Positions 30,744 through 34,780 of a stretch of DNA of 64,000 nt are shown piece after piece (positions within the stretch are counted from its first letter, which is position 1; each line of letters begins with the position of its first letter). The translations under genes were made by a program, and so were the position numbers. The stretch covers positions 3,782,001 through 3,846,000 of the forward strand of contig JAVLRN010000002.1 of the NCBI GenBank assembly GCA_032821775.1. Direction: 5' to 3'. This DNA comes from Sanguinoderma infundibulare (Eukaryota; Basidiomycota; Agaricomycetes; Polyporales; Polyporaceae). Under the pieces are notes generated by a model. It saw only the letters and a program-made list of their open reading frames with translations, searched no databases and had not been told where the DNA came from.

Positions 30744-30772
30744 CAGGAAAACCCTCCCAAGCAAATTCAATG
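30744..30772 (+). repeat. Left terminal inverted repeat of nested element
   Basis: Starts CAGGAAAACCCTCCC. It pairs with the complement of 34752-34780 with about seven mismatches and one gap over 28-29 bases. Confidence 0.7.
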
Positions 30773-30810
30773 TATTTAGTACAACTAATGATCTAATAGA
30801 GCTACTATGA

Positions 30811-30840
30811 ATCTAATTTGATCTAATTTGATCTAATTTG
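30811..30840 (+). repeat. Left subterminal array
   Basis: Three perfect tandem copies of the 10-mer ATCTAATTTG. Other CTAAT/CTACT motifs lie nearby. Confidence 0.9.
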
Positions 30841-31142
30841 GCTATTTGAGTACTAATATTGTACTAACATGCAAGGACATCTTTATAATTGTAATAATAT
30901 GCACTATCACTTGGACAGGGAACAGCAGTTGTACTACTACTTGAGATCTACTTTGATGTATTGGGACATCAAAACATACCACTATGCTTGGGTACTTTGA
31001 CATCACATTCACCATTATACACAGCACAAACAACAGCAAGGGGGAGGGTCAAAAGCCTTTAAGGACAGCTATGATTGTGGACTACAATACACATACATGA
31101 CGCCCTCTACAGCCTACACATAACAGTACAATGAGGCTCGGC

Positions 31143-31759
31143 TCAAAGGATGGTGAAATGGGTGCTCAGAGTACGGCAATGGGTACGGAGTGACTCCTGT
31201 GGATGTGGGGATACGGACAGTCGTAGAGCCGAGCTGATGACCTCATCATCACTCACAATGATGATCATCTCGCGGGCGGTCGCCAGCCGCTGAAACAGAG
31301 CGGTGACGGTGGGCGGAGATGTCTGCCGCTTTTGCAGTACGCTGCTGGACACAGGCGTTGGCGTCAGCGTCGGGGGTCACCGATGGGGTGCGCGAGTGCG
31401 GCACTGACGTAGGAGTCACGGAAGAGGACGATGATGATGGCCTAATCCTGACAATTGCTGGTGACAGCAGCGGAGTTCACAGGCGGAGGCAGCATCTGCT
31501 TACCTTTGTTGTCCGAATCGAGTTCCATCTCCTCCTCCCCTACCTCTGTCACTGGAGGTATGGCAGGTGGACGCTTGGACATCCTCTCAAGTGGAGGACA
31601 AAGCAGAGGGAGCGGGGAGAGAAGCAGGAACAGAAGAGCGCTGGGGCATGTGTCCGAGAGAGGGGAGCAGTGAGAGAGAGAGGACGTCCGACAGTATGTG
31701 ATGGAGAGAAGGCGACCAAAAGAGGGTGATCCGAGAGCTTGAAGGAGTATGAGGCAGGA
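31143..31759 (-). other. Unassigned interior of the nested element
   Basis: Contains short minus-strand ORFs, for example a 46-codon stretch starting MSKRPPAIPPVTEVGEEEME at about 31578 that could be an exon of another captured gene. The junction with the H2A fragment is near 31760, where H2A similarity stops abruptly in mid-exon. No donor recognised. Confidence 0.4.
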
Positions 31760-32204
31760 GGACGATACGCTGCTTCTTGTTGTCACGAGCCACGTTGCCC
31801 GCAAGTTCAAGAATCTCGGCGGCAAGGTATTCCAGGACAGCGGCGAGGTATACTGCGGGACGGGCACATTGTAATCGGGGTAAGGCACATGACTATGTAC
31901 GCAGATAAGGGGTAGACGCACCAGGAGCACCTGCACCAACACGCTGAGTGTAGTTGCCCTTCTTCAAGAGACGGTGGACAAGACCGACGGGGAACTGGAG
32001 ACTGACCTTGGCGGAGCCGGACTGGAACTTGCCCGCCTCACCACCAGCCTTTCCAGAAGCCGATGTGCCACTGCAGAGGGCAACGTATGAGTAAATGACG
32101 CGTGAACTTGGGTTGTTGGGACGCGTACGAGTTTCCCTTGCCAGACTGCGAATTCCGAGTCAGTATGCATCAGTAGACAGATGCAAATGGTGAGTGCGCA
32201 CCAT
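31760..32204 (-). pseudogene. Captured histone H2A gene fragment (introns retained)
   Basis: Read on the minus strand: an ATG at 32204 followed at once by a GT donor, a small exon (SGKGNS, 32145-32129), then an exon at 32070-31922 with [20 protein letters not shown] and VGAGAP. An exon at 31852-31760 follows with [20 protein letters not shown] and KKQRIV, where similarity ends before the conserved [17 protein letters not shown] borders are intact and the intron after GAGAP sits where it does in the H2A at 62392. Substitutions at normally invariant positions (RVHRLL to LVHRLL, AQRV to TQRV, GNAARD to GNVARD) and the missing C-terminal third show it is not a working histone. The donor is another H2A gene, since its N-terminus differs from the one in this window. 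Confidence 0.9.
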
Positions 32205-32460
32205 ATTTGCTTGTTAGAGGTGCTTGATTTGAGGAAGGACGTGAGCATGGTGATGGAACAGGAAAGGGACGTGTGTTGGACGAGGGCGAAGGGGTGACGT
32301 GGCGAGACAAGTTCAAGTGTTAGATGCTGGATGTGGCTGCAACTGTGGCGCCCAGCGTCTGACACTTCAACATCGCCACGTCGTCTCGTTGCCTCATCTT
32401 CCACGGCTCGCATATAGTCCCCACTCTTCTCCTTCTACTCTGTTCCACACTCTTACCATT

Positions 32461-32694
32461 GGTCGACGGAAACGACGGTTCCTAGAAGGACGACTCTGAC
32501 TCCTCTCCTGTCTCTGATGTCGACAAGCCCAACTTTGACGACAATGACCCCGACGCACACACGGAACGAGAGCTCTTCGAGAACCCTTACAAGAGGAAGC
32601 GGAGACGAAAGAACAGGAAGGGCGATGCGATATACAGCGTGTTCGGGAGCGATGATGACGAGGAGGTCGAGAAGGTCGGAAGGTGAAGACGCGT
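32461..32694 (+). pseudogene. Captured fragment resembling the N-terminus of a TFIP11/STIP-type G-patch splicing factor
   Basis: Reads GRRKRRFLEG, then after a one-base frame slip DPDAHTERELFENPYKRKRRRKNRKGDAIYSVFGSDDDEE, then stops. The acidic patch, the basic KRKRRR run and the A-I-Y-x-V-F-G core are like the N-terminal domain of tuftelin-interacting-protein-11 family splicing factors in fungi. The initiator codon appears altered (ATTGGT where ATGGGT might be expected) and the G-patch domain itself is absent. Identification is from memory of the family pattern, so moderate. Confidence 0.55.
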
Positions 32695-33795
32695 GCGAAG
32701 GCCCACCAGCAGCACCAACTCCAACTCCAACTCCAACGGTCATGGGCACGGCGCCGGGCGCGGGCAGCACTGCATGCCCCCCTCGGAATCCCCCTACCCC
32801 CCATCACAGCACCTAGAAGACAACGCCCCGCCGATGCCCACCAAGATTGCCAAGCCCGCATCGCCCCACCGCCGCTTGAGCGCGGAGAGCACATCGCGCC
32901 CCTCGCTTGCCCCTGCCTCCTCGCTTGCCCCCGCCTCCTCACTTGCCCCCGCCTCCTCGCTTGCCCCCGCCTCCTCGCTTGCCCCCGCCTCCTCGCTTGC
33001 CCCTGCCTCCTTGCTTGCCCCCACCTCCTCGCTTGCCCCCGCCTCCTCGCTTGCCCCCGCCTCGGGGTCTGGGACCGGCCCCGGCAGGTGGGCGGAGAGC
33101 ATGGGCTCGGGCTCGATGGTCAGGATCGGCGCGGGTGTGGGTGCAGGAGGTGGTGGAGGTGGTGGAGGAGAAGGGCTGGGCATGGCGATGGCGATGGGGA
33201 CACAGAGTGAACTGGGCCACGGCTATGTACCGCCGCGGGTGAGCGCGGAGTACGAGGCTGCGAGTGTTGTCGGGGACGGGGAGACTCCGGCGGCGGTGAG
33301 CGCGGTGGACATGGCGACGCTCGTCGAGCCGAGTTTTGACGAGAACATCTTGCAGGCGCTGTGTGAGACGGACGTGAGTGCTCTCTATTCCTGGCTAGCC
33401 ACCTGCTTTGGCTGGTTGGCTGGTCAGTTCTGTCTCCGTGCATGCGCTGACCTTCTGTGGACGTTGGGCGATTTGGGCGTTGTGCGTTGTGGGGACTGTA
33501 CGATCGCTGCGGCACACTTGGTGGATGCGGTGCTTCATGCGCGATATCGTGCAGGGTGCCTCCACTTCCTGACCGGATAAAGCAGAGTATGTCTTCATGT
33601 ATGGTGAGTCCCCGAGCCCCGGGCCCCAACGCTCCCCGAAAAGGGATCGAGTCGTTGAAGCCATGCAACCTTCCGCATGTAGGAAGCTGCCGCATTCCTC
33701 AAGAGACGCGCCGGACGAGTACGGGAGGCAGATGCAGAAGCTTGCACGCTCGACGTCGGCAGAGTATGTGACGATGGACGGCAAGGCTGGGTGCG
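32693..33795 (+). pseudogene. Captured fragment of an F-BAR/RhoGAP protein gene
   Basis: The ORF at 32693-33580 ends in an exon with PSFDENILQALCETD followed by a GTGAGT donor. After an acceptor near 33554 comes LPDRIKQSMSSCM, then a donor and acceptor, then EAAAFLKRRA and DEYGRQMQKLARSTSAEYVT with DGKAG, ending at another donor near 33791. This order (ALCETD, DRIKQSM, AFLKRRA, EYGRQMQKLARST) is the start of the F-BAR domain in fungal RhoGAPs. The next conserved F-BAR segments (SFVxAWQ...) do not follow. A small deletion before DEYGRQ breaks the frame, so it is a captured 5' gene piece with introns, not a functional gene. Confidence 0.8.
32901..33065 (+). repeat. 18-bp minisatellite encoding SLAPAS repeats
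   Basis: About nine near-perfect tandem copies of CTTGCCCCCGCCTCCTCG with rare C/T and G/A changes. In the plus frame they encode repeated SLAPAS. It lies inside the nested element, in the leader of the F-BAR-like fragment. Confidence 0.95.
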
Positions 33796-33839
33796 TTTGA
33801 TCATCATTTGTGTGTGGTTGGCTGAGGAGTTGGCGCCAT

Positions 33840-34420
33840 CTGACTCTGAGCCCTCGAAACCACCCTCTCCTAGGACACCTTCCGTGCGGAAACTCGCCGT
33901 CCCCAGCGAGCGAGCCTCGCCCTCCCAACTCGCAAGGTAAGCTCCCACCTCACTCCATCTCCTCGGCCCCTCCCGTCCTCAGCACTGGCATAGCACAGTC
34001 ACGGCGGATGTCTTCTGGTGTCCGCAGTGACGAACTCGTGGGCCACCTCTGGGGACACCTCGTCGCCGACATACCCCCGCCTCCGGTCGAAGATGGCAAC
34101 GCAGACTCGGATACTGACCCGAATACGGACATGGCGCGATTATGGACGCTGGATATGAAGATGGACAGGAAGATGGTCGCTGGACTTGGGGGGGAAGACG
34201 TAGACGGTATCATGTGCTGGTCGCATTCTGTCTGAGTCTGCTCAGTAGGACTCGTGCTCACTGAACTTGTTGCTTTTTCAGGGTTGGGCTCTGCAAGTTT
34301 TGGGTGCTTCCGGGGGAGGCGAACAGGGGATGGCCACCTTGTTTGTCTTGCACCTTCTGACCAGCGTGGATGTTGCTAACTACATTGTTCTTGCTCGCTG
34401 TTGCTCACGGTTGTCACTGT
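33840..34420 (+). other. Further exon-like pieces in the nested element, origin unknown
   Basis: Open segments flanked by plausible splice sites, for example SDELVGHLWGHLVADIPPPPVEDG at 34025-34100, preceded by a CCGCAG acceptor. They do not continue the F-BAR domain and may come from a fourth gene. I cannot name it. Confidence 0.35.
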
Positions 34421-34700
34421 TTGTTACCTGCTTGCTAGTATATAGCTACAGCAATGTATTAGTTATGCTCAATATACCCTTTTCATGTCTATCTTCTATG
34501 TGGTGTGTGCAAGTTCTGGACAGCCCAATAAACCTGTAGTCCTGTGTTAGCAACCATTAGGAAGGATTAGGGATAATGTAGTACTACAGTACTATTAGGC
34601 ACAGAGTAGCACTAATGTAGTGCTACTTTGTCCCTAATACTTCTAAAAAAAATGGGGACCTGTCTAATTTAGAGCTAATGTCCCTAATGCCACTAATGCA

Positions 34701-34730
34701 AAACTAATTCCAACTAATTCCAACTAATTC
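34701..34730 (+). repeat. Right subterminal array
   Basis: Three copies of a 10-mer (CAACTAATTC, first copy AAACTAATTC), with dispersed CTAAT motifs for about 140 bases upstream. The CTAATT core is shared with the left array, in the same orientation. Confidence 0.85.
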
Positions 34731-34751
34731 CAACTTTTTAGTGGTACTTTC

Positions 34752-34780
34752 ATCAAATTAGCCTGGGGAGGTTTTTCCAG
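34752..34780 (-). repeat. Right terminal inverted repeat of nested element
   Basis: Read on the minus strand it starts CTGGAAAAACCTCCCC, matching the left end. Confidence 0.7.

What the first reader, a model, noticed from the sequence alone, without database searches (positions are those of the whole stretch)
30744..34780. Gene-capturing (Pack-type) DNA transposon in a basidiomycete, carrying pieces of at least three unrelated host genes
Seen: a 4,037-bp block with terminal inverted repeats, short target duplication, subterminal arrays and no transposase. It contains H2A exons, an F-BAR/RhoGAP 5' region and a TFIP11-like N-terminus, in mixed orientations. Known: Pack-MULEs and other Pack-TYPE elements do this in plants; Helitrons do so in plants and some fungi. 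A TIR element with multiple captured gene pieces in a mushroom-type genome is, to my knowledge, poorly described. Inference: a non-autonomous family mobilised by a transposase encoded elsewhere, able to shuffle exons.
Basis: partly seen in the sequence, partly recalled or inferred. Interest (0 to 1): 0.92.

Follow-up and report, generated by a model that had tools for sequence, protein, structure and literature searches.

The report
Fungal transposon carrying stolen gene pieces
A 4-kb mobile DNA element in this probably fungal genome carries pieces of several unrelated host genes, histone H2A and TFIP11 among them, sits in three places, and shares its ends with some fifty other elements that are likely moved by a Plavaka-type transposase made by larger relatives, so it would be a gene-shuffling system like those known from plants.

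Summary
Exact borders are 30741-34782 (4,042 bp) with a 2-bp target duplication (CT); five related copia-type sites are uninterrupted. The ends recur: 72 left and 72 right pattern matches, none for the reversed patterns; 54 pairs span 2.7-5.1 kb; 31 of 42 pairs read have exact 2-bp duplications. Thirty-eight short elements fall into 29 interior groups. About 86% of the window interior matches six loci elsewhere: H2A, TFIP11, an F-BAR-like gene, a WW-domain gene, a 679-aa-ORF locus, and a multicopy C3 locus. The F-BAR piece lies inside the TFIP11 piece, and both stand where relatives keep other sequence, so capture was stepwise. The composite then moved: three copies differ by 2.0-2.3%. The likely mover is a Plavaka transposase: three of the four best Plavaka hits lie behind such left ends, two inside end pairs with 2-bp duplications. 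The right terminus differs from published PlavakaB. Pack-TYPE capture is known in plants and animals, and transduplication in an ascomycete; the papers listed in my searches report no multi-gene Plavaka elements.

The parts
30739..30740 (.). left copy of the 2-bp target duplication (CT)
   Evidence: sequence; uninterrupted site at five other places
30741..31097 (+). left end shared by the family: imperfect TIR CATCAGGAAAACCCTCCC plus AT-rich subterminal CTAAT motif array
31241..31638 (-). three collinear pieces of the locus C2:3978560-3980190, 81/92/97%; pieces 2 and 3 lie inside one uninterrupted 679-aa ORF (no Pfam match), so their join is a deletion, not splicing; piece 1 lies beyond the end of that ORF
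31757..32303 (-). H2A gene piece, one continuous 547-bp match covering part of the H2A exon ORF and about 410 bp upstream of it, donor C6:1661121-1661666, 91%
32405..32704 (+). TFIP11 (TIP_N, G-patch) 5' part including the former start codon (now ATT), donor C6:2771461-2771772, 91%
   Evidence: start codon read
32704..33823 (+). 5' part of an F-BAR-like gene with an expanded 18-bp repeat, donor C6:626530-627512, 90-92%; lies between two TFIP11 pieces
33824..33870 (+). second TFIP11 piece, donor C6:2771289-2771335, same orientation; the 125 donor bases between the two pieces are missing
33870..33951 (+). remnant of a WW-domain gene piece, donor C11:307647-307730, 92%; two relatives carry about 660-670 bp of it
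33948..34349 (.). two pieces matching a multicopy locus on C3 (for example C3:659815-660595), 81-82%; nature unknown
34443..34782 (+). right end shared by the family: subterminal CTAAT/ATTAG motifs, an inverted repeat with 27-nt arms and imperfect TIR ending TTTTTCCAGAG
34783..34784 (.). right copy of the 2-bp target duplication (CT)
   Evidence: sequence

Best explanation
The block is a non-autonomous, gene-capturing DNA transposon of the Pack type that sits in a copia-type retrotransposon, belongs to a family of some fifty elements with the same ends, and is likely moved in trans by a Plavaka-type (CACTA-related) transposase made by larger relatives. Shown: the shared ends, the 2-bp target duplications, different interiors between the same ends, matching loci elsewhere in the genome, three copies of the finished composite at different sites, and Plavaka transposase genes between the same ends in two larger elements. 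Inferred: that this transposase binds the CTAAT-rich ends and moves the short elements, and that host DNA enters as filler when a broken or gapped element is repaired and the repair copies other genomic places before rejoining (template switching). In the window lineage an ancestor likely already carried pieces of the 679-aa-ORF locus, H2A and the WW gene; part of the WW piece was then replaced by TFIP11 sequence with an F-BAR-like gene piece nested in it, after which the composite moved to three places.
For: Ends: 72 left and 72 right pattern matches in 48.9 Mb and 0 for each reversed control pattern. Pairing: 63 of 72 left ends have a right end within 25 kb in the same orientation, 54 of them 2,665-5,111 bp apart (one right end with a 1-bp deletion was added by hand). 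Duplications: exact 2-bp match in 31 of 42 pairs read, against 1 in 16 by chance; 32 of 40 after two alternative C12 pairings are dropped and a 1-bp slip is corrected. Uninterrupted site: five full-length matches. Interiors: 29 groups among 38 short elements. Donors: six loci cover about 86% of the window interior, with H2A, TIP_N/G-patch and WW domains in three of them. Order: relatives C2:967426-971456 and C6:2296607-2300515 hold 657-670 bp of the WW gene, where the window has TFIP11 + F-BAR + TFIP11 and an 84-bp WW remnant. Three copies of the composite differ by 2.0-2.3% and have different duplications CT, TA, GG. Transposase: the 40 Plavaka hits, merged by me to 20 loci, include 4 within 8 kb behind a left end (about 1.2% expected per locus), among them 3 of the 4 best hits; the KDZ hits, merged to 56 loci, include 0. 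C2:730758-742807 has both ends, a GC duplication, and an ORF with Plavaka E 4.5e-81; C16:250779-273553 has both ends and a GG duplication around a Plavaka hit, its left end 83% identical to the window's over query bases 1-190. Parts of the 12-kb Plavaka element match the same stretches of two short elements that match C3:1464-1466 kb. Published PlavakaB: 2-3 bp duplications and CATCA left terminus (PMC12730594, passages). The four junctions examined are blunt or overlap by 1 bp, and the window's terminal 180 bp find no match (E 0.001) inside 38 elements.
Against: The right terminus ends in AGAG in all 42 pairs, not in the TGATG reported for PlavakaB. The window's ends match those of the 12-kb Plavaka element at only 66% (left, 240 bp) and 70% (right, 176 bp), so it need not be the working partner; the C16 element spans 22.8 kb and only its ends were read. 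The fourth association (C3:459996) is in the opposite sense and lies beyond the paired right end, so it is probably coincidence; the second-best Plavaka hit, C2:4014719, has no listed end within 8 kb. One KDZ locus, C4:2862836-2863606, lies between a right end (C4:2854579) and a left end (C4:2883681) of the same orientation 29 kb apart, just outside my 25-kb pairing limit. Four long pairs (C4:2673914-2690223, C4:3182458-3197605, C14:125964-136874, C14:367535-382990) were not read and could hold another transposase. Eleven of 42 pairs lack an exact duplication. Interiors are not all independent captures: 28-100% of each group's interior is shared with other groups. Junctions show almost no microhomology, so template switching is not specifically demonstrated. 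One donor-like locus of another element, C11:85148, resembles C9:2622378, which lies 770 bp from a Plavaka hit, so it may itself be transposon-borne. No movement, expression or transposase binding was observed.
Confidence: 0.75

Rival explanations
1. Same element family and same mover, but host DNA is acquired by joint mobilisation of two neighbouring insertions (local hopping) that carries the DNA between them, as proposed for plant Pack-CACTA, rather than by repair with template switching.
For: Reported for plant Pack-TYPE elements (PMC8903248, passages). Seven neighbouring element pairs lie within 15 kb against 1.2 expected and a maximum of 5 in 2,000 random draws, though three C12 left ends share one right end and inflate this, and contigs beyond C19 were left out of the draws.
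Against: The window's terminal 180 bp find no match inside 38 elements. The window's donors lie on four contigs, none within 100 kb of the element, and the F-BAR piece is nested inside the TFIP11 piece, which joint mobilisation does not readily give.
Confidence: 0.12
2. The elements are moved by a different, unrelated transposase, and the Plavaka genes found between such ends are themselves passengers or nested insertions.
For: The right terminus differs from published PlavakaB; end similarity to the 12-kb element is modest; one paired element contains a nested Ty3/Gypsy-type retrotransposon, so nesting does occur; one KDZ locus lies between two ends 29 kb apart; four long pairs were not read.
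Against: Three Plavaka genes lie in the same antisense orientation 4.4-6.4 kb from a left end. The 2-bp duplication and CATCA terminus are those of PlavakaB. None of 56 KDZ loci lies within 8 kb behind a left end.
Confidence: 0.1
3. A Helitron or other rolling-circle element captured the gene pieces, as known in Pleurotus and other fungi.
For: Helitrons capture gene fragments in fungi (PMC4289320, search listing and start of abstract only).
Against: 2-bp duplications of variable sequence in 31 of 42 pairs and imperfect inverted ends; Helitrons insert at AT without duplication and end in CTRR (recalled).
Confidence: 0.02
4. The block is an ordinary pseudogene cluster or segmental duplication, with repeats at its edges by chance.
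For: The TFIP11 start codon is lost and the eight longest ORFs have no Pfam domain.
Against: End-to-end copies at three sites with different 2-bp duplications and uninterrupted sites.
Confidence: 0.01

Closest known systems
Pack-CACTA and other Pack-TYPE elements of plants (PMC8903248, passages)
   Same: Non-autonomous TIR elements with short target duplications that carry DNA of several host loci and share ends with transposase-coding relatives; CACTA is a relative of Plavaka (PMC12730594).
   Different: Probably fungal host, Plavaka-type transposase, 2-bp duplication, left terminus CATCAGG instead of CACTA, asymmetric right terminus.
Pack-TIRs of animals (PMC8277862, passages)
   Same: Captured filler between TIRs; gap filling or template switching proposed as the source; multicopy forms spread by transposition.
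   Different: The window element matches six other loci and has one nested capture; overlap at the four junctions examined is only 0-1 bp.
PlavakaB transposons of Agaricomycotina (PMC12730594, passages)
   Same: Plavaka transposase, 2-3 bp duplications, CATCA left terminus.
   Different: Right terminus ending AGAG instead of TGATG; most elements here are short, and those scanned lack a transposase and hold host-like DNA.
Histone H3-like transduplication by a hAT element in Pyrenophora tritici-repentis (PMC3538342, passages)
   Same: A fungal DNA transposon that carries a host-type gene between its TIRs; the paper also describes an ORF carried by a Tc1/Mariner element.
   Different: There one H3-like gene and an additional ORF in a hAT element, with many near-identical copies; here fragments of several loci in many different interiors, in a Plavaka-type family.
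Helitrons of Pleurotus ostreatus (PMC4289320, listing only)
   Same: Capture of gene fragments in a basidiomycete.
   Different: Rolling-circle elements, without target duplications and TIRs (recalled).

Membership tests
Pack-TYPE / Pack-TIR element | terminal inverted repeats shared with a transposase-coding family | tested here: met
   imperfect TIRs; ends shared with Plavaka-coding elements
Pack-TYPE / Pack-TIR element | target site duplication | tested here: met
   CT here; 31 of 42 pairs; five uninterrupted sites
Pack-TYPE / Pack-TIR element | no transposase gene of its own | tested here: met
   no Pfam hit in the eight longest ORFs of the window element
Pack-TYPE / Pack-TIR element | interior derived from host coding loci | tested here: met
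   six matching loci, about 86% of the interior, three with Pfam domains above cut-off; matches away from listed family ends in 4 of 4 elements searched
Pack-TYPE / Pack-TIR element | mobilised in trans | not testable with these tools
   inferred from three composite copies at different sites
PlavakaB | Plavaka transposase (PF18759) in the coding relatives | tested here: met
   E 4.5e-81 in C2:730758-742807; Plavaka hit inside C16:250779-273553
PlavakaB | 2 or 3 bp target duplications | tested here: met
   definition from PMC12730594
PlavakaB | left terminus CATCA | tested here: met
PlavakaB | right terminus TGATG | tested here: not met
   CCAGAG in 36, CTAGAG in 4, TCAGAG in 2 of 42 pairs; therefore filed as Plavaka-associated, not as PlavakaB proper
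KDZ (Zisupton and kin) | 8-bp duplications (Zisupton) and a KDZ transposase between the ends | tested here: not met
   2-bp duplications; 0 of 56 KDZ loci within 8 kb behind a left end; one lies between two ends 29 kb apart
MULE or hAT | 8-9 bp target duplications (recalled) | tested here: not met
   2-bp duplications
Helitron | no target duplication, 3' CTRR (recalled) | tested here: not met

The most novel reading that the evidence does not exclude
Plavaka transposons run a standing gene-shuffling system in this mushroom-type genome: dozens of short elements of nearly constant size accrete fragments of host genes one after another by replacing their own filler, exchange these modules among themselves, and spread the composites as units. 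It would be the first multi-gene Pack family described for Plavaka, and one in which the order of capture can be read.
Probability: 0.5. Interest if true: 0.75.

Novelty: new variant of a known kind. Interest (0 to 1): 0.62.

Why it matters
Gene capture by cut-and-paste transposons has been studied mainly in plants and recently in animals; how it happens is still debated. Here a compact genome holds a large family with shared ends, donor loci still in place, transposase-coding relatives, and nested captures whose order can be read against relatives. That makes the choice between repair-based filling and joint mobilisation of neighbours directly testable, and it would add Plavaka, a little-studied superfamily, to those able to shuffle exons.

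Tried and rejected
Considered and rejected: E19 (C10:1550-16973, 15.4 kb) as the autonomous element; its long ORFs are those of a retrotransposon (aspartyl protease, RNase H, integrase). KDZ transposase as the mover (one KDZ locus between ends 29 kb apart stays as a result against). Helitron, MULE and hAT by target duplication. Spliced (RNA-level) capture: pieces 2 and 3 of the 679-aa-ORF locus lie in one uninterrupted ORF and the H2A match runs on upstream of the exon ORF, so DNA-level capture with internal deletions fits better; the first join of that locus (donor 780 to 1866) was not checked for splice sites.

Tried without result: the protein database timed out three times, so neither the host species nor wider Plavaka relatives were identified. 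Of 20 long ORFs from other elements four had a Pfam match at E 0.01: SRF-TF in two (one below cut-off), Tudor-knot in one, Ldh_1_C in one; 16 had none. These 20 were picked by me from 51 non-redundant ORFs. No structure prediction was made.

The fetched ones were chosen by their place in the hit lists, before their interiors were seen. In one search three of the 42 pairs use the same C12 right end, and one pair (C2:2104871-2108204) counts as lacking a duplication because of my 1-bp coordinate slip; one search gives 32 of 40 with both mended. The 38 elements are not quite those: they include two long elements and leave out two of the three composite copies. Donor-like loci of the three other elements searched were located but, except for the 5' part of the WW gene on C11, not read, so their nature as genes is not shown.

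
Full report
What was checked. The reported block was read and its two ends and its interior were searched against the whole host genome, 48.9 Mb in 87 contigs, unnamed. The ends recur widely. A pattern made from the terminal 24 bases finds 72 left ends and 72 right ends; the same patterns read backwards find none. Pairing by orientation gives a right end within 25 kb for 63 of 72 left ends, and 54 of these pairs span 2,665-5,111 bp.

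Borders and target duplication. Aligning copies showed that conservation runs from CATCAGG to CCAGAG, which places the window element at 30741-34782 (4,042 bp), flanked by CT on both sides. Of 42 pairs read, 31 have identical dinucleotides on both sides, against 1 in 16 by chance; 32 of 40 when two alternative C12 pairings are dropped and one coordinate slip is mended. The dinucleotide varies. The element lies between the gag/integrase and the reverse transcriptase regions of a copia-type retrotransposon (Retrotran_gag_2 2.1e-10, rve 5.6e-08, RVT_2 1.4e-54). The joined flanks without the element and with one CT match five other places over all 195 bases, at 83-96%. This settles that the block is an insertion with a 2-bp duplication.

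Common ends, different interiors. Across elements about 357 bp at the left and 340 bp at the right are shared. They are AT-rich and full of CTAAT/ATTAG motifs. Of 38 short elements read, of 54 short pairs, interiors fall into 29 groups at 70% mutual coverage. The groups are not independent: 28-100% of each interior is found in some other group, so modules are shared by descent or exchange.

Donors of the window element. Six loci match the interior: C2:3978560-3980190 (679-aa ORF, no Pfam match), C6:1661121-1661666 (histone H2A), C6:2771289-2771772 (TFIP11, TIP_N and G-patch), C6:626530-627512 (F-BAR-like, weak FCH match below cut-off), C11:307647-307730 (WW domain) and a multicopy locus at C3:659815-660595 (domains). 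Together they account for 2,893 of 3,345 interior bases, some 400 of them from the C3 locus. H2A, TIP_N, G-patch and WW are above Pfam's cut-offs. The H2A match is a continuous 547 bp that goes about 410 bp beyond the exon ORF, so capture was at the DNA level. The TFIP11 start codon is lost in the window copy, and none of the eight longest ORFs of the element has a Pfam domain, so there is no sign of a working product.

Order of capture. Two relatives, C2:967426-971456 and C6:2296607-2300515, hold 657-670 bp of the WW gene; the first also holds the H2A piece and, within a few bases, the same first join within the 679-aa-ORF locus. In the window element the left part of the WW piece is gone, and in its place lie TFIP11, F-BAR-like, TFIP11. 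Since the two TFIP11 pieces are in order and orientation, with 125 donor bases missing between them, the F-BAR piece likely entered the TFIP11 piece or was copied during the same repair. The four junctions looked at are blunt or overlap by 1 bp. The window's terminal 180 bp find no match inside 38 elements. This favours filling during repair over joint mobilisation of neighbours, but does not prove it.

Movement after capture. The full composite is present at C2 (window), C3:3740452-3744403 and C8:2586381-2590296, with different duplications (CT, TA, GG) and 2.0-2.3% divergence, while the H2A, TFIP11 and F-BAR pieces of the window copy differ from their donors by about 9%. The composite therefore likely moved as a unit well after it was assembled.

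Other elements. Three further elements, of the 38 read, were searched in the same way: C3:503219-507619, C2:2174638-2178063 and C17:71080-74427. All three have matches of 86-90% at loci with no listed family end nearby, for example C11:85148-85836, C11:308375-309134, C11:266143-267084, C8:972216-972826 and C6:2398384-2398989. Contig C11 holds none of the listed ends. C11:85148 resembles C9:2622378, which lies 770 bp from a Plavaka hit, so that piece may be transposon-borne. Of 20 long ORFs of other elements four had Pfam matches: SRF-TF (two, one below cut-off), Tudor-knot and Ldh_1_C.

The likely mover. Plavaka (PF18759) hits were merged to 20 loci, of which four lie within 8 kb behind a left end, among them three of the four best hits, all three antisense at 4.4-6.4 kb; about 1.2% would be expected per locus. 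The fourth is probably coincidence. Of 56 KDZ loci none does, though one lies between two ends 29 kb apart (C4:2854579 and C4:2883681). C2:730758-742807 is bounded by both ends with a GC duplication and encodes a 402-aa ORF with a Plavaka match (E 4.5e-81) and the CxxC and Hx4H motifs described for the group. C16:250779-273553 has both ends with a GG duplication. A 2025 paper (PMC12730594, passages read) gives PlavakaB 2-3 bp duplications and termini CATCA..TGATG; the left terminus and the duplication agree, the right terminus does not. I therefore call the family Plavaka-associated and do not file it as PlavakaB. Four further long pairs were not read.

What is known. Pack-TYPE elements including Pack-CACTA are known in plants (PMC8903248, passages), Pack-TIRs in animals (PMC8277862, passages), and transduplication of a histone H3-like gene by a hAT element in Pyrenophora tritici-repentis, called there the first in fungi (PMC3538342, passages). 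Helitron capture is described in Pleurotus (PMC4289320, listing and start of abstract only), and transposon-mediated amplification of a housekeeping gene in fungi (PMC6710886, listing and start of abstract only). A survey of fungal host-TE fusions (PMC10799480, passages) does not mention Plavaka in its main text, and the Marasmius study (PMC9674265, passages) mentions Plavaka for a deletion. Searches for Plavaka, Pack-TYPE with fungi, Pack-MULE with fungi, transduplication, Pack-CACTA, captured fragments in basidiomycetes, CACTA with basidiomycete gene capture, and mushroom gene fragments listed no title or abstract start reporting a multi-gene Pack family of Plavaka type; several lists were capped and the library holds open-licence papers only.

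Verdict. The superfamily assignment is well supported but indirect; the capture mechanism is inferred.

Noticed in passing
C10:1550-16973 (L019, L020): One element with family ends and a TA duplication contains a nested Ty3/Gypsy-type retrotransposon (protease, RNase H, integrase domains), so it is long probably only by insertion.
   Followed up: partly
C9:2440319-2444528 and C13:649832-653424: In these elements the left end resembles an inverted copy of the right end over some 310-350 bp, while the terminal bases are still CATCAGG; C10:306704 and C15:639726 may be alike.
   Followed up: no
C1:4234397-4340834: A stretch in the C2:2174638 element (query 269-727) matches, at 88-89%, seven places on C1 spaced about 17.7 kb apart, and two small contigs; their nature was not determined.
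   Followed up: no
C1:8359, C17:1474 and 14191, C31, C84: A stretch of the C3:503219 and C17:71080 elements matches places close to contig ends or on small contigs at 73-75%, perhaps a subtelomeric repeat.
   Followed up: no
middle of many elements, for example C16:493863-497706 near 1490-1700: A module near the middle matches other elements in both orientations, as if it held an inverted repeat.
   Followed up: no
window 62458-62715: A sequence 74% identical to the captured H2A piece lies in the same window; another lies at C2:3867471-3867793. Probably H2A paralogues; not checked.
   Followed up: no
C3:530-950 kb: A multicopy sequence matching window 33948-34349 occurs at a dozen places in one stretch of C3; unknown nature.
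   Followed up: no
C4:2854579-2883681: A KDZ transposase hit lies between a right and a left family end 29 kb apart.
   Followed up: no
window 32900-33065: An 18-bp tandem repeat in the captured F-BAR-like piece is expanded here compared with the donor and differs in length between the three copies.
   Followed up: partly
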